Below, in pieces: positions 17,284-24,816 of a stretch of DNA of 64,000 bases; positions within the stretch are counted from its first letter, which is position 1; each line of letters opens with the position of its first letter. Source of the DNA: Candidatus Zemynaea palustris (GTDB lineage: Bacteria > Vulcanimicrobiota > Vulcanimicrobiia > Vulcanimicrobiales > Vulcanimicrobiaceae); assembly GCA_003134695.1 (NCBI GenBank), contig PLCB01000058.1:62001-126000 (forward strand), written 5' to 3'. The position numbers were made by a program, and so were the translations under genes. Below the pieces are notes generated by a model. It searched no databases, was not told where the DNA came from, and saw only the letters and a program-made list of their open reading frames with translations.

Positions 17284-17556
17284 CTAAGCCGCTTTCTTGC
17301 GGCGACGCGCGGCCTCTCGTGGATTGCGGCGCACGGCCCTTATCAGCTTGGGGACAACCGCGTCAGGTTTTGGAACCGGAACCCCATCGCGTTTCGCGAA
17401 GCGAATGTATCCAGCTATCAAGTCGGCCGCCATCGCACGAGCGCCCGCTTCGCCTCGTCCCTCTGTTACCGCCCGAAAAGCTGGGATCTCCGCCGTCCAA
17501 ACTCCTCCGCCAGCGTTTTCAAGAATGACATGATAAGCGGGTTTTTGACTATTCAT
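17284..17556 (-). CDS. HicB-like antitoxin
   Basis: A 90-residue protein, YHVILENAGGGVWTAEIPAF and onward, with the HicB pattern of a short beta hairpin and a helix (GARAMAADLIAGYIRFAKRD). The C-terminal tail is strongly basic (RRNPREAARRRKKAA), which could bind nucleic acid. It overlaps the upstream HicA-like gene by 8 bases. The family call is fairly strong from the fold pattern and the pairing. Confidence 0.7.
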   Translation of the reverse strand: MNSQKPAYHVILENAGGGVWTAEIPAFRAVTEGRGEAGARAMAADLIAGYIRFAKRDGVPVPKPDAVVPKLIRAVRRNPREAARRRKKAA

Positions 17557-19210: not shown

Positions 19211-19852
19211 TTACTTGTGTATGACGATCTCGACACGGCGGTTCTTCTTGCGACCCCCCGGATTGTCGGAGCCGTCGGGTTTGGTGTTGGGAGCGACCGG
19301 ATTGCGCGCCCCAAAGCCCTGCGTTGCGAAATCGACTTTGCGTAGGCCGTCTTTGTCGATGAACCAGCGCTTGACCGACTGCGCGCGGCGCTCCGAGAGC
19401 CCTTGATTGTACGTGGCTGAACCCTTGCCGTCCGTGTAGCCGAAGATGCGCACTTGGCCCTTTGCGCTGCCGCCGATGAACTGCGCGATCCGCGCGAGCG
19501 TCTGCCGCGCCTTCGGCTGAATCTCCGCGCTGTCGAAGTCGAACAGTACGTCGGATGCCAGTTCGATCCGAACCTCGGTGCGCGACTGCTTGACGGCCAT
19601 ATCCTTGCTCTGACCGACCATGTTCTGGATCTTGGCATCCATGTTCTGGACATTGCCGGACATGTTCTGGGTATTGCCGGACATGTTCTGGGTCTGGCCG
19701 GACATGCTCTGAGTTTTGCCGGACATGTCCTCGACGTGAAAGACCAAATCCAGAATTTTCGTCTTGTAGGTAGGATCCGCCGCCGATCGTTGCGGGTGCG
19801 CAGCGGCCGCGAGCACGAGCATCACCGTCAACGCTCCCAGCCCGCGAATCAT
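19211..19852 (-). CDS. OmpA-family protein with Met/Asn heptad repeats
   Basis: A 213-residue protein. Signal peptide MIRGLGALTVMLVLAAAAHP. Residues 43-84 are six seven-residue units of the type MSGNTQN. The C-terminal 115 residues are an OmpA/MotB peptidoglycan-binding domain (VLFDFDSAEIQPKARQTLAR, IFGYTDGKGSATYNQGLSER, RAQSVKRWFI, then RRVEIVI). Such domains tether an outer envelope partner to the cell wall. The ATG overlaps the stop of the lipoprotein gene (ATGA). It is the last gene of the five-gene envelope operon. Confidence 0.88.
   Translation of the reverse strand: MIRGLGALTVMLVLAAAAHPQRSAADPTYKTKILDLVFHVEDMSGKTQSMSGQTQNMSGNTQNMSGNVQNMDAKIQNMVGQSKDMAVKQSRTEVRIELASDVLFDFDSAEIQPKARQTLARIAQFIGGSAKGQVRIFGYTDGKGSATYNQGLSERRAQSVKRWFIDKDGLRKVDFATQGFGARNPVAPNTKPDGSDNPGGRKKNRRVEIVIHK
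19601..19726 (-). repeat. 21-bp tandem repeats coding Met-rich heptads
   Basis: Six consecutive 21-base units inside the OmpA-family gene encode MSGKTQS, MSGQTQN, MSGNTQN, MSGNVQN, MDAKIQN and MVGQSKD. The middle three are nearly identical in DNA, which points to recent expansion. The heptad spacing suits a coiled coil or another extended rod between the signal peptide and the OmpA domain. Confidence 0.85.
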
Positions 19853-20460
19853 TGCGCGATCGGAACGCCGTCAAGCGGAACGAAATGCGGAACCTCGACG
19901 GTAATCTTGGTGACGCTCGGCGGAGGCGCGGGGAACTTCGCCCAGACAGCGGCTTGCGTGTTTGCCGAGATATCATCCACACCTTGACTGCAGAGGCAAA
20001 TACCGTCGGTATCCGCTATTGCAAAGTATTTCTTTTTCGACACGGCGTCGATCAGATGAACGCCCGACATGTCCCGGGAGCTGTGGTATCCGTCGCCGTG
20101 GAAAATACCCGTGTACAACTGGCCGGCCGAGTTGTTGACCAGCGTGAACTTGAGCGTGACCGTGTCCCCCGAGCTGCGCGCGAGCGAGTTCACCACGACC
20201 TTCGTCCCGGTTTTATCGCCGTCACTGCTCGCGAGGCCCGCGTTCGAACCTGCCGGCGCAGCGGTCGTTGCGCTCTGGGGCTGCGCCGTGGCTACCGCAG
20301 GCTGCGCCGTGGCCATCGCAGGCTGCGCCGCGGTCGGTTGCGAGACGGGCGCCGCCGTACTTTGCGCGTCGCTCTGCTGGCTCTTCGTACAGCCGCCGAT
20401 CGCAGCCGCAAGCAGCGCGAACGTGGCAACTCGAAAGACGAGGTTGCTCTTCGATATCAT
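19849..20460 (-). CDS. Lipoprotein with AQP repeats
   Basis: A 203-residue protein. MISKSNLVFRVATFALLAAA followed by IGGC is a lipoprotein signal with a lipobox, so the mature chain starts at Cys 24. A low-complexity stretch with three AQPAxAT-type heptads (21-bp DNA repeats near 20280-20340) leads to a beta-rich domain (VTLKFTLVNNSAGQLYTGIF and onward) with one CLC motif. Its composition suggests an envelope-attached lipoprotein that may display or bind an extracellular partner. The function is unknown. It starts 37 bases after the Cys-rich gene and overlaps the OmpA gene. Confidence 0.8.
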   Translation of the reverse strand: MISKSNLVFRVATFALLAAAIGGCTKSQQSDAQSTAAPVSQPTAAQPAMATAQPAVATAQPQSATTAAPAGSNAGLASSDGDKTGTKVVVNSLARSSGDTVTLKFTLVNNSAGQLYTGIFHGDGYHSSRDMSGVHLIDAVSKKKYFAIADTDGICLCSQGVDDISANTQAAVWAKFPAPPPSVTKITVEVPHFVPLDGVPIAQ

Positions 20461-20497
20461 CGTTTCTCTCCGTGCTTCTTCAGCTCTTGGTGACCGT

Positions 20498-22372
20498 CTA
20501 TTTCGGGGGCGCTTGGCACTCCGAGGACGGCCAACAGCCCCATGCGTTGCCGTTTTGCGGGCTGATGCATGCGACCTCGTTCGCCGCGCAGCACTGTCCG
20601 TTGTAGCACTGCCTTCCCTTGGGACAGCAGACGTGCTCGGTTGCGTTCGAGTGCGGCATCGATGACGTACACATATATTGCGATGAGGTGCACCTCACCG
20701 ACTTGCACGTGGACGTCCTGGCGTCGGCACAGCCGGACGGGCAGCACTTCGTGCCGCAGGCGGTACCCGTGTTGCAGCACGTCCCAAGGGTCGTCCGCTG
20801 CCCGCTCAAGCACAAGCCGCAGCACTTGCTCTTGTCATGGGCGCAGCATTGGCCTTGGCAACATGTGTCGCCGCACCAACGAGAGGCCTCGGCGCCACTT
20901 CCACCAAAGCAGCATTTACCGTTTTTGCAGTGACCGGGACAATACGCGGCTCCGCACATGTCGCTCTTCTTGACGCAGGGACCGCGGAAACCGTAGCTGC
21001 CGACGCAGACGTAATCGTTGTCCGGGCAACAAACCATCCCGCCCGAAGTCCCATAAGCGCCGGGCGTGTGGAAGTTGCTGCAACAGGTCGTGCCGGGTGC
21101 GCAACAGAGCCCTCGTTGCGGGGCTGTCGCCGGGTACGCGGCGCAGAACTTCGTGTTCTGCGGGCAACAGAAATCGTAACCGGCATTCGCGCAGTACGAT
21201 CCCGCCTGGCAGCAGACGGCGCCGCATCCCGGTCCATGTCCCGGATTGCAGCACTCGAGGACGTTGTTCAGGCACAGCTGACCGGCGGGACAGCAACCAC
21301 CTTTGCAACACGCTTGATTCGGGGGGCAGCAGGTCTGGTTGTTATTGCCGAAGATGCAGCAGTGCGCGCCGTTACCTTGACAGCAGTTGCCGTCCACGTT
21401 GCACGAGGCCGGGCAGCACGCGTTCCCGGGTTTGGAGCAATCGTTCACGCAATTCGAGACCGCATTGGCGCAGCCATTGCCCGTTGCCTCGGCCACAAAA
21501 TCGCCGAGACAAGTAAGACCACAGGTGGCGGCGCAAGTGCTGACGACGCCGGCGAGGCAGAGTCCGTAGAGACCCCCACACTTCCACTGACAGGCATTGC
21601 AGTCCGACATGTTGGGCGGGGGAGGATTGTTCGAGCCGTCCGCAACGATGGTCTGCGCGAAGGCCACGCGCGTCGGCGCGTCGGCCGCCGCTGTTTGCGC
21701 TTTGAACTTTGCCAGAACACGCTCGATCGCTTTCTGCGTCTTCGGGTCGACGGTGCGCGGCGGAACTGGTTGCCCGTCGCTAAAATAGAACCTCGAGTCG
21801 TTCTTCGTGAAGGGACGCAACGCGCGCCCATCAAGCGATCCGGAACCCTTGTTGTCTTTCCACACGAGCACGAAGTGCTTGCCACCGGAGAATCCCGCGC
21901 CGTACTCGATGTCGACACGTAAATGCCCGGGAGCCGCTTGATGCGACTTGAGGTCCAGCGCCTTTTTCTTGCCGACCGTAAAGGCCCAGTGGGTGCTGAT
22001 CGCGGGCTTGGCGGGGACCGGAACGATCCGCTTTGTCACCGGGTTGAAGTGTGGACCGGCGTGCGGGCCGTGGAGCACGGTATGCGTAAAGGTGGCATAC
22101 AACGTCGTCACCCGGTTGTTCAACGTGTCCGTCGCGGTCTTGGCGACGATGCTATTGCCGGCGCCGAACGTGTTCCCGCTGCCCAACGTCGCGGTGCTTA
22201 GCGGCACGATTTTTCTATTCGACGAGTTTTGGAGCGCGGCCGAGGCGGGGCGTCCGAGCAGCGGAGCGCCCAAGGTCGCAAACGCGGCCGCAGTGAGCTG
22301 GCGGACGACTTCTCGCCGCGACAAACTGCCGGACGCCACTTGTTTGGTAAGGTCGTCGAACCAGTGGCCCAT
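20498..22372 (-). CDS. Tat-exported, extremely cysteine-rich protein
   Basis: A 624-residue protein. The N-terminus has a twin-arginine signal (SLSRREVVRQLTAAAFATLG, then AxA). Residues of about 50-250 form a Cys-free domain. From about residue 260 to the end I count 71 cysteines, many as CC pairs in units such as CCPPNQACCKGGCCPAGQLC, with spacing like granulin- or EGF-like repeats. All those Cys are likely to be in disulfides after export. I know similar Tat plus Cys-rich proteins only as unannotated ones from soil bacteria. It starts 6 bases after the MauE-thioredoxin fusion gene stop, which is the likely source of its oxidant. Confidence 0.82.
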   Translation of the reverse strand: MGHWFDDLTKQVASGSLSRREVVRQLTAAAFATLGAPLLGRPASAALQNSSNRKIVPLSTATLGSGNTFGAGNSIVAKTATDTLNNRVTTLYATFTHTVLHGPHAGPHFNPVTKRIVPVPAKPAISTHWAFTVGKKKALDLKSHQAAPGHLRVDIEYGAGFSGGKHFVLVWKDNKGSGSLDGRALRPFTKNDSRFYFSDGQPVPPRTVDPKTQKAIERVLAKFKAQTAAADAPTRVAFAQTIVADGSNNPPPPNMSDCNACQWKCGGLYGLCLAGVVSTCAATCGLTCLGDFVAEATGNGCANAVSNCVNDCSKPGNACCPASCNVDGNCCQGNGAHCCIFGNNNQTCCPPNQACCKGGCCPAGQLCLNNVLECCNPGHGPGCGAVCCQAGSYCANAGYDFCCPQNTKFCAAYPATAPQRGLCCAPGTTCCSNFHTPGAYGTSGGMVCCPDNDYVCVGSYGFRGPCVKKSDMCGAAYCPGHCKNGKCCFGGSGAEASRWCGDTCCQGQCCAHDKSKCCGLCLSGQRTTLGTCCNTGTACGTKCCPSGCADARTSTCKSVRCTSSQYMCTSSMPHSNATEHVCCPKGRQCYNGQCCAANEVACISPQNGNAWGCWPSSECQAPPK

Positions 22373-22378
22373 GCGCTA

Positions 22379-23884
22379 TTACCCCACCGTCGCCGTAACG
22401 CGGCCATTACCGCCAGGTGGCACTTCTCGATTGGCGAGCGCGAAGACCTCTTGGGCGCCGGCGGCCACCTGGGAAGCGACGCGTCCTTCACCATCCAATA
22501 GGACCGCCATCGGCGTTCCGGTTGCCCCGAACGCCTGGGCGGCGCGGGAACCCTCATCCAGGACGACCGCGGACTGAAGGTTCAGCGTGGAATTGTCGGC
22601 CGCGCTACCGCTCGAGACGACGACCAACCGGGGCGCTGCAGGCGGCGGTCCCGTGGCTTCCCACGCCTTCAGATCGGGCAGCATCTGCTGACAGAAGCCG
22701 CAGCCCTGATTCCAGAACAACAGCAACGTCGCCGTACCCCGTAGACCGGAAAGCGCGAACTCTTCTCCGGCGACCGTCTTGAACGTCAACTCCGGCGCCG
22801 GCTCGCCGACGCGAAGCGTTTCCACCTGAGCGGGCAACGGGGGAAGTTCGCCGGCCTGGATCGTGAGAACGAGGTTCCGAATGGCTTCCCCGCCTTGCGC
22901 GACGTGGCTCGCGACGCGGCCATCCGGCGCAATTGCCACGGCCGCCGGCGTGCCGTAAGCCTGGTACTGCTCGGCGACCTCGCGTTCGCGTTGCAGCAGC
23001 ACGAGTTTGACGCCGCGTGACGCAACCTTCGAACGATTTGCGTCGGCCGATCCCTCGGCGATCAGCGCGATCTTGACGTGATCGCCGAGGTCGCGCTGCC
23101 AGCCGGCGACCTCCGGGAGCAGCGTCTGACACGGACCGCAATCGGGATTGGAAAACAAAAGCAGCGCCGGTTTGTTCTCTTGTAACAAGCCCTCGAGGCT
23201 CGTCGATTCGCCCTCGAGTCCGGGCAAGGCGAATGCGGGCGCCGGCGTACCAGGCGGTAGCCCGACGAGCGGAACGGCCGGCTCGAATGTAGGCGCCGCG
23301 CCGCCTAAACGCTGCTCCAGTTCATCGAAACGTAACAGCATGCGGCCTTGCTGACGCAAGATCTGAACGAGGAGCGCCGCCAACGCCGCGAGGATTGCGA
23401 TGACGCAGAACGCGACGACGAGCGAAACCGACTCCGCGACGCTCAACGACCGCGTCCAGCCGACCAAGCTGAGTGCATTAGGATCACGACCGCCCGACAC
23501 GACGAGGCCGGCGATCGCCGCGAGCACGACGTTGCGCACGAACGTCGGCCAGCCGATCGGCGCAGAGTGCAATTGACCGAAGCAATTGCAGTTCGGCCGG
23601 CGGTTTCGAAGCAGATTGGCCGCGATCGCCGCGCTGAACGCGGCGAGCAGAACGACTGCGCCGACCGCCCCGTACCAAGCCGTCGCGACCGGAAGCAGCG
23701 CCGTTGCGACGCTGAGTTCGGCGATGACGAGAATGACCGCCGAAGCGCCGGCAAGACGAGGCGATACGCCGAACTCGATCAGGCCTTCGCGCGTGCGCGC
23801 CATCGCGGCGAGCTTCGAGAGGCCCGCCACCGCGAAGATGGCTGCAAGCAGGACGCGGCCAGCAAGAAACAACGCTCCGGCCAT
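22379..23884 (-). CDS. MauE-like membrane protein fused to two thioredoxin domains
   Basis: With the ATG at 23884 (overlapping the RDD gene stop) it has 501 residues. Residues 1-175 are a MauE/DoxX-type four-to-five-helix domain with the family motif RPNCNCFGQLHS (Cys 99 and 101). Residues of about 205-345 are a thioredoxin/AhpC-like domain with CGPC at 249-252; about 355-490 is a second with CGFC at 395-398. MauE and MauD are needed for disulfide formation in methylamine dehydrogenase light chain; a single chain with both functions and an extra thioredoxin domain is unusual. It sits directly before the 71-Cys protein gene. Confidence 0.85.
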   Translation of the reverse strand: MAGALFLAGRVLLAAIFAVAGLSKLAAMARTREGLIEFGVSPRLAGASAVILVIAELSVATALLPVATAWYGAVGAVVLLAAFSAAIAANLLRNRRPNCNCFGQLHSAPIGWPTFVRNVVLAAIAGLVVSGGRDPNALSLVGWTRSLSVAESVSLVVAFCVIAILAALAALLVQILRQQGRMLLRFDELEQRLGGAAPTFEPAVPLVGLPPGTPAPAFALPGLEGESTSLEGLLQENKPALLLFSNPDCGPCQTLLPEVAGWQRDLGDHVKIALIAEGSADANRSKVASRGVKLVLLQREREVAEQYQAYGTPAAVAIAPDGRVASHVAQGGEAIRNLVLTIQAGELPPLPAQVETLRVGEPAPELTFKTVAGEEFALSGLRGTATLLLFWNQGCGFCQQMLPDLKAWEATGPPPAAPRLVVVSSGSAADNSTLNLQSAVVLDEGSRAAQAFGATGTPMAVLLDGEGRVASQVAAGAQEVFALANREVPPGGNGRVTATVG

Positions 23885-24816
23885 CAGCTCTTGGTGATCG
23901 TGAACGGGAGCGATTTTGCGAGGGTGTCCCCGATATAGATGTCGACGTGATACTTGCCGGCGGGCAATCCATTGGAGGAAGGCGTCAACGAAAACTCTCC
24001 GGAGTCGGCACCGGTGATCGACCTTTCCACGAGCTTCGTGTTCGGAGGAGCGGCACTGCCGACGTCTTCGGCGATCCACACCGCGCGGATCGGCACGTCG
24101 GAAGCGACGCCTTCGGCCCGCCACACGCAGATGATCTTGGGTTGATTCCCCGGAAAAGTGTCGGTGGGACCGACGATGTCGTAGGTGGGGGTGTAATCGG
24201 TGCCGAGCGCCGTACTCGTCAGGTGCGGGACGCTCGCGGCCGAGAGCGGCGCACCCGCGTGCAGCGAGACGGCGACGAGAATTGACGCGACGATGAGCAC
24301 AACAAGTGCGATCGCGGCGCTCAGCCTGCTCGCGAGACTCGCCTCGACTTGCACGACGACGGTGCCCGCGACGCGATCGCCGAGCCGCTGTCTCGTCCGC
24401 GAGGTCATCGCGACGATAAACCCGACGAGGTACACGCCGATCCCGTCGATGGCGCGGAACAGATTGCGGATCAGCGATTTACCCAGCCCGGGCGTGCTTC
24501 CGGCGAGATTGCGGACGCGCAGCCGCATGATCGCCTTGCCCAAGGTTGCGCCGAAGAGGCCCTCGCCGAACCAGAGATAGAGGAAGCCGACCGCGCCGAC
24601 GATCGTGACGACGAGGAGCCCAGGCGCTCCTTCGAGGTTGAACCCGTTGCTCGTGACGCCGCCCCAGCGCACGGCCGCCCACATCCCGACGACGGGGAAG
24701 ACCGTCGACATGACGATGATGTCGAGGATCGCGGCGATCGCGCGATCGCTCATCGGCGCGATCGGCGGCCCTGGTGTCGACGGCGGCCCTGGTGTCGACG
24801 GTTGCATGAGCTTCAC
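23884..24816 (-). CDS. RDD-family membrane protein with exported C-terminal domain
   Basis: A 310-residue protein. A short Pro-rich tail precedes RDD-type helices (MSDRAIAAILDIIVMSTVFP, then LFGATLGKAIMRLRVRN and RTRQRLGDRVAGTVVV). After a last hydrophobic helix near 165-190 the final 120 residues look exported and beta-rich. RDD proteins act as transporters or accessory membrane proteins. It is the first gene of the operon, 41 bases past the carB stop on the same strand. Confidence 0.78.
   Translation of the reverse strand: MKLMQPSTPGPPSTPGPPIAPMSDRAIAAILDIIVMSTVFPVVGMWAAVRWGGVTSNGFNLEGAPGLLVVTIVGAVGFLYLWFGEGLFGATLGKAIMRLRVRNLAGSTPGLGKSLIRNLFRAIDGIGVYLVGFIVAMTSRTRQRLGDRVAGTVVVQVEASLASRLSAAIALVVLIVASILVAVSLHAGAPLSAASVPHLTSTALGTDYTPTYDIVGPTDTFPGNQPKIICVWRAEGVASDVPIRAVWIAEDVGSAAPPNTKLVERSITGADSGEFSLTPSSNGLPAGKYHVDIYIGDTLAKSLPFTITKS

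What the first reader, a model, noticed from the sequence alone, without database searches (positions are those of the whole stretch)
19211..24816. Candidate disulfide-secretion module: RDD, MauE-Trx-Trx fusion, 71-Cys Tat protein, lipoprotein, OmpA protein
Seen: five minus-strand genes with 4-base overlaps or gaps of 6-37 bases. The second is a MauE-type domain (CNCFG motif) fused to two thioredoxin domains (CGPC and CGFC). The next encodes a twin-arginine-exported protein with 71 Cys in its last 365 residues. Known: MauE and MauD are needed to form disulfides in methylamine dehydrogenase light chain. Inference: the fusion is a dedicated oxidase/isomerase for the Cys-rich client, and the lipoprotein and OmpA protein anchor the product at the cell surface. 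I know of no described system with this layout.
Basis: partly seen in the sequence, partly recalled or inferred. Interest (0 to 1): 0.75.

Follow-up and report, generated by a model that had tools for sequence, protein, structure and literature searches.

The report
Mobile gene pair folding cysteine-rich protein
Two neighbouring bacterial genes, a membrane-bound thiol-oxidising enzyme and an exported protein packed with 71 cysteines, travel between distant bacteria and are lost as a unit, and most likely work as an enzyme and its private client, a wider version of how methylamine dehydrogenase gets its disulfide bonds.

Summary
The sequence observation holds, but the module is two genes, not five. 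The RDD, lipoprotein and OmpA genes form an independent operon, found uninterrupted in relative G095. In the window, a 3,387-bp cassette (MauE-Trx-Trx fusion plus 71-Cys protein) sits at the RDD stop codon between 18-bp direct repeats (17/18 identical).

The fusion equals MauE, a MauD-like thioredoxin and an extra TlpA/ResA-like thioredoxin, in the order mauE-mauD-mauA. The Cys-rich gene has no Pfam, NCBIfam or PDB match. Its leader (WFDD...SRR) is MauA-like: a profile of such leaders retrieved genuine MauA from other genomes.

Fusion and client leader co-occur in Chloroflexota-type genomes (9 of 11 fusion-positive, 2 of 339 others; p=1.5e-14), and the two exceptions carry a related twin-thioredoxin gene beside the client. 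The pair was lost together twice in relatives. Of 47 complete leader-bearing proteins (two are MauA), 43 have an even cysteine count (p=1.4e-9), as expected if all cysteines pair.

Best reading: a dedicated oxidase/isomerase with Tat-exported disulfide-rich clients. What the client does is unknown. The redox direction is inferred, and knockouts of analogous DoxX+Trx genes in lasso clusters left disulfides intact. New variant of a known kind.

The parts
20498..23884 (-). Two-gene cassette (fusion plus client), inserted into a pre-existing RDD-lipoprotein-OmpA operon
   Evidence: Flanks are contiguous in G095 (85% and 77% DNA identity) and in G064 (72% and 73%); 18-bp direct repeats at both ends
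23884..23901 (-). Direct repeat copy 1, ACGATCACCAAGAGCTGA, the last codons and stop of RDD
20480..20497 (-). Direct repeat copy 2, ACGGTCACCAAGAGCTGA, directly after the client stop codon and continuous with the old RDD-lipoprotein spacer
22379..23884 (-). MauE-Trx-Trx fusion, 501 aa
   Evidence: PF07291 1.3e-24, AhpC-TSA 4e-20 (2 stretches), TIGR02661 MauD 2.7e-15 but below its cut-off; AF2 model mean pLDDT 75
23582..23590 (-). CNC of the CNCFG motif in the MauE loop (residues 99-101)
   Evidence: CxCFG kept in all 35 fusions aligned
23129..23140 (-). CGPC active site of thioredoxin domain 1, the MauD-like part (residues 249-252)
   Evidence: CxxC kept in all 35 fusions
22691..22702 (-). CGFC active site of thioredoxin domain 2, the ResA/TlpA-like part (residues 395-398)
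   Evidence: CxxC kept in all 35 fusions; PDB hits 3kcm and ResA
20498..22372 (-). Cys-rich client, 624 aa, 71 Cys
   Evidence: No Pfam, NCBIfam or PDB match; homologs beside fusions in other genomes
22238..22372 (-). MauA-like twin-arginine leader MGHWFDDLTKQVASGSLSRREVV... (about residues 1-45)
   Evidence: A4 profile; reciprocal similarity with MauA leaders
21623..22237 (-). Cys-free N-terminal beta domain of the client (about residues 46-250)
   Evidence: AF2 core pLDDT about 90, 8 strands plus a helix; no PDB fold match
20516..21601 (-). Cys-rich region (residues 258-619, all 71 Cys)
   Evidence: invariant cysteines in the five-protein alignment
23884..24816 (-). RDD-family membrane protein: host operon, not part of the cassette
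   Evidence: PF06271; contiguous with lipoprotein and OmpA in G095
19849..20460 (-). Lipoprotein: host operon, not part of the cassette
   Evidence: 67-69% identical copies on other contigs than the fusion in G095 and G064
19211..19852 (-). OmpA-family protein: host operon, not part of the cassette
   Evidence: PF00691; same three-gene order without the cassette in G095

Best explanation
A mobile two-gene system: a membrane thiol-disulfide oxidoreductase with its own exported client. Shown by sequence: the fusion joins MauE, a MauD-like thioredoxin and a second thioredoxin, and pairs with a Cys-rich protein carrying a MauA-like twin-arginine leader. Inferred: the client is exported through Tat. 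Its cysteines then pass electrons to thioredoxin domain 1 (CGPC) and/or 2 (CGFC), one probably acting as oxidant and the other as isomerase. The CxC pair of the MauE part, which the model places on the same membrane face as the thioredoxins, re-oxidises them and hands electrons to a membrane acceptor. The product is a cysteine-paired extracytoplasmic protein. The RDD, lipoprotein and OmpA genes are the operon into which the cassette inserted and are not needed for this. What the folded client does is not known.
For: Adjacency in the fusion's client clade: of 18 fusions, 10 are beside a leader-type Cys-rich gene (one gene between in G522; leader not seen at a contig end in G064), 2 beside PqqD-Tat-Cys genes, 3 have clients elsewhere in the genome. 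Co-occurrence p=1.5e-14 in Chloroflexota-type genomes, 3.3e-10 after removing genomes that supplied profile rows; p=2.5e-7 in the own phylum, where the count includes G008 (twin-thioredoxin form) and 4 profile-source genomes; p=3e-4 in Acidobacteriota-type genomes. Both Chloroflexota exceptions have a twin-thioredoxin gene next to the client. One joint gain and two joint losses. Even cysteine parity 43/47. Gene order mauE-mauD-mauA. Leader profiles of clients and MauA find each other. In the own genome a thioredoxin domain is fused to six Stig1 Cys repeats.
Against: No biochemistry. The window's own client has an odd number of Cys (71). Tat signal models do not hit the window leader at E<=10. 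In class I lasso clusters, DoxX/Trx knockouts (sviF; mslE, mslF) did not abolish disulfides and sviF loss affected export (PMC9266682). A related 17-member clade of the fusion sits between der and tgt genes with no client leader in those genomes, so the enzyme can work without such clients. CGPC is also the motif of reducing thioredoxins. Parity counts are not fully independent because some clients are paralogs.
Confidence: 0.7

Rival explanations
1. The enzyme works in the reducing direction: MauE passes electrons outward and the thioredoxins keep client cysteines reduced so that the client can bind metal or act as a thiol buffer.
For: CGPC motif and ResA/TlpA-like second domain, families often reducing; many CC and CxxC pairs in the client.
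Against: Even cysteine parity fits disulfide pairing more directly, though metal sites can also use even numbers. MauE/MauD are linked in the literature to forming disulfides (PMC7794033, citing van der Palen 1997). No metal-binding family matched.
Confidence: 0.12
2. A general extracytoplasmic thiol oxidoreductase that merely sits next to a Cys-rich gene; the pairing is lineage history or shared regulation, not enzyme and client.
For: The der-tgt clade has no client leader; Thermomicrobiales-type genomes keep clients away from the fusion; G159, G676 and G620 have the fusion and no leader-type client found.
Against: The association recurs across phyla with different architectures, including twin-thioredoxin forms and a direct Trx-Stig1 fusion, and survives joint gain and loss.
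Confidence: 0.12
3. A five-gene disulfide-secretion module in which the lipoprotein and OmpA protein anchor the product.
For: Gene order and tight spacing in the window. The lipoprotein was found in only three of the 57 genomes searched, apart from three marginal short matches, and all three also hold the fusion and client.
Against: The three genes form an uninterrupted operon in G095 on another contig than the cassette; the insertion footprint is visible in the window; the other client-linked loci read lack them.
Confidence: 0.04

Closest known systems
mau cluster, methylamine dehydrogenase light-chain maturation (MauE, MauD, MauA)
   Same: Order mauE-mauD-mauA; MauE family domain; MauD-like TM-thioredoxin part; twin-arginine leader with FD motif; Cys-rich exported client with even Cys number in the MauA proteins read.
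   Different: MauE and MauD parts are fused and a second thioredoxin is added; the client is not PF02975 and has 71 rather than 10-14 Cys; no mauB or mauG beside it.
DoxX + thioredoxin pairs in class I lasso peptide clusters (sviE/sviF, mslE/mslF; PMC9266682)
   Same: A DoxX-family membrane protein and a CXXC thioredoxin protein next to a disulfide-containing secreted product.
   Different: Separate genes; small lasso peptides; no MauA-like Tat leader reported; knockouts did not abolish disulfides.
mauE-containing candidate RiPP families of decRiPPter (PMC7794033)
   Same: MauE (once with MauD) beside precursors with at least 8 Cys, outside any mau cluster.
   Different: Streptomyces, predicted only; no fusion, no long Cys-rich protein or leader described in the passages read.
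STIG1-like Cys-rich repeats (PF04885)
   Same: Cys-rich repeats coupled to a thioredoxin domain in the window's own genome (contig C36) and in G021.
   Different: The window client itself does not match PF04885 or any other Pfam family.

Membership tests
MauE (PF07291) | Score above the curated Pfam cut-off | tested here: met
   87.4 bits against cut-off 27, residues 3-122 of the 494-aa query
MauD equivalog (TIGR02661) | Score above the curated cut-off | tested here: not met
   56.3 bits against cut-off 188.6; similar to MauD, not a MauD equivalog
Methylamine dehydrogenase light chain (PF02975) | Mature domain matches PF02975 | tested here: not met
   No match at E<=10 for the window client, while true MauA from G285/G420 scores 1.5e-41
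mau system | mauE-mauD-mauA order | tested here: met
   By analogy: MauE+MauD-like fusion followed by a leader-bearing Cys-rich gene; annotated mau loci show the same order
mau system | mauB and mauG present | tested here: inconclusive
   None among the five genes of the run; the rest of the window was not scanned by family and the rest of the genome was not searched for them
Tat substrate | Twin-arginine signal recognised by curated models | tested here: inconclusive
   SRREVV followed by a hydrophobic stretch is present, but no TIGR01409 or PF10518 match for the window protein at E<=10; some homologs match weakly
Lasso or other named RiPP class | Class-defining modification enzymes in the cluster | not tested
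   No RiPP-specific scan of the window was made; the five genes show only RDD, MauE/thioredoxin and OmpA
Disulfide oxidase/isomerase (activity) | Oxidising or isomerising activity on the client | not testable with these tools
   Needs biochemistry

The most novel reading that the evidence does not exclude
The FD...SRR MauA-type leader is an address tag: it marks very Cys-rich Tat clients (up to 146 Cys after the leader) for a MauE-thioredoxin membrane enzyme, a general leader-directed disulfide-folding route of which methylamine dehydrogenase maturation is one specialised branch.
Probability: 0.3. Interest if true: 0.85.

Novelty: new variant of a known kind. Interest (0 to 1): 0.66.

Why it matters
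The exact role of MauD remains unclear in the literature read, and how bacteria fold proteins with dozens of cysteines is little studied as far as I know. A mobile, self-contained enzyme-client pair with a recognisable leader makes that directly testable in a laboratory host. It also gives a search handle: the leader profile found proteins with up to 146 cysteines, so far described only by composition here, in genomes that also encode the enzyme.

Tried and rejected
BLAST with the whole Cys-rich protein finds nothing in the phylum beyond the own genome, and nothing in plasmids or viral contigs; profiles of the fusion and of the leader were needed. The second own-genome BLAST hit (L002) has no Cys-rich ORF in the list read and was set aside. 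Five-gene module: rejected. Membership in mau by PF02975: rejected. Fold search of the client N-terminal domain against PDB: no match at E<=0.001; the viral library was not searched. PDB sequence search with the client: none. One alignment used L155 out of frame and was replaced. A first tree lost rows through an over-strict filter and was redone with 35 rows. Literature searches on MauE with Tat or cysteine-rich terms gave few useful papers.
Full report
Observation. The window is part of contig C42 of a 2.70-Mb draft genome, about 97% complete. The fusion starts at 23884, sharing one base with the RDD stop. All 71 cysteines of the client lie after residue 257.

The fusion. Residues 3-122 match MauE. 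The region around the first thioredoxin domain matches MauD (TIGR02661, 2.7e-15, below its cut-off), and the second thioredoxin is ResA/TlpA-like. BLAST and phmmer against real MauE and MauD from six annotated mau loci agree. So the fusion corresponds to mauE+mauD plus an extra thioredoxin. The model shows helices at 2-26, 42-63, 69-92, 112-130 and 150-192, followed by two thioredoxin folds. Counting helices, the CxC loop and both thioredoxins fall on the same side of the membrane whichever way the protein inserts (inference). CxCFG and both CxxC motifs are kept in all 35 fusions aligned.

The client. It has no family, PDB-sequence or PDB-fold match. Homologs beside fusions in G095, G064, G097 and a Bryobacterales genome are 25-36% identical and share a beta domain and many invariant cysteines. 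The beta domain models as eight strands and a helix with core pLDDT about 90.

Recurrence. A fusion profile found 25 of 347 genomes in the phylum of the Bryobacterales genome and 11 of 350 in the phylum of the Thermomicrobiales genome. The tree splits them into two clades (100/100). One, 17 rows, lies between der-like and tgt-like genes in nearly all cases and has no Cys-rich neighbour. The other, 18 rows, contains the window and all client-linked cases. In the client clade 10 are beside leader-type Cys-rich genes, 2 beside PqqD-Tat-Cys genes, 3 have such clients elsewhere in the genome, and 3 have none found. The window's fusion is sister to the Bryobacterales one (58% identity, 100/99) rather than to those of its own phylum, which suggests horizontal transfer.

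Co-occurrence. With strong leader hits (E<=1e-5, match starting at profile position 5 or less), Chloroflexota-type genomes give 9 of 11 fusion-positive against 2 of 339 fusion-negative, p=1.5e-14. Removing the three genomes that supplied profile rows gives p=3.3e-10. The two exceptions, G521 and G657, have twin-thioredoxin genes directly beside the client. In the own phylum the counts are 4 of 5 against 0 of 144; the five include G008, which has a TM-twin-thioredoxin gene rather than the MauE fusion, and all four leader-positive genomes supplied profile rows, so there the informative part is the absence elsewhere. In Acidobacteriota-type genomes (E<=1e-7) the counts are 3 of 25 against 0 of 322; two of the three supplied profile rows. 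The score thresholds were chosen after seeing the hit lists.

Gain and loss as a unit. In G095 contig C148 the order RDD-lipoprotein-OmpA is uninterrupted. The window's RDD side (85% identity) and lipoprotein-OmpA side (77%) map to abutting stretches there, overlapping by 18 bases, which are the direct repeat seen at both ends of the cassette. G064 gives the same contiguity. Conversely, G097 C4 matches the G095 C407 locus except for most of the Cys region and the fusion, and G095 C28 matches the G097 C6 locus except for the fusion and nearly all of the client.

Cysteine parity. Of 47 complete leader-bearing proteins with at least six Cys after the leader, 43 have an even number (p=1.4e-9). This count was made once, with the leader cut set by the profile. 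Two of the 47 are MauA (L076, L146), and paralogs are not independent. The window's client, with 71, is one of the four odd ones.

Leader and MauA. A MauA-leader profile scored on 11,712 ORF N-termini ranked client leaders next after MauA itself, at weak E-values (7e-4 to 0.3). It scores clients above generic Tat leaders (median 11.8 against 5.9, p=2e-5; clients had been selected by the leader profile). In the reverse direction the client-leader profile pulled two proteins that Pfam confirms as MauA (PF02975 1.5e-41 and 3.1e-40), with leaders beginning MNWFD. Common descent of the leaders is likely but not proven; both are Tat-type signals.

Literature. decRiPPter reported mauE-containing candidate RiPP families with Cys-rich precursors and says MauE has been speculated to help form disulfides while MauD's exact function is unclear (PMC7794033). 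Class I lasso clusters carry DoxX plus thioredoxin, but mutants still make disulfides (PMC9266682). The general idea is therefore known. The fused enzyme, the MauA-like leader on very Cys-rich proteins, the co-occurrence and the cassette behaviour are what is new here, as far as the papers searched show.

Limits. Everything is sequence inference on draft genomes. The redox direction, the electron acceptor and the function of the client are not shown. Phylum names for G handles are inferred from the named genome each search was centred on; the own phylum is not named by the tools.

Noticed in passing
L026:5834-7210 (own genome, contig C36): A thioredoxin domain fused to six Stig1-like Cys-rich repeats (PF04885 1.5e-42); a similar thioredoxin plus Cys-rich-repeat fusion is in L027 (G021).
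   Followed up: partly
L034, L069: Fusions beside PqqD-domain, Tat-type, Cys-rich proteins and a nucleotidyltransferase-like gene; an HPr-kinase-like gene is also present in L069. This looks like a RiPP-type setting.
   Followed up: partly
L057, L060 (G150, G749): Fusions with three and four thioredoxin domains in genomes with at least 15 leader-type genes, clients with up to 80 (G150) and 146 (G749) Cys after the leader.
   Followed up: partly
L024:7143-8630, L061, L068: A phosphoesterase-like gene next to the fusion-client pair in G097 and G612.
   Followed up: no
L065/L159 (G593): A leader-type N-terminus joined directly to thioredoxin domains in one ORF; could be a real fusion or an assembly or deletion product.
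   Followed up: no
window:16649-16924 and 17284-17556 (-): Two small ORFs that resemble HicB-type proteins by eye; not tested.
   Followed up: no
fusion residue before cis-Pro of thioredoxin 1: All 17 rows of the der-tgt clade have WTP at the cis-Pro loop of thioredoxin 1, while most client-clade rows have GTP or ATP; possibly linked to substrate choice.
   Followed up: partly
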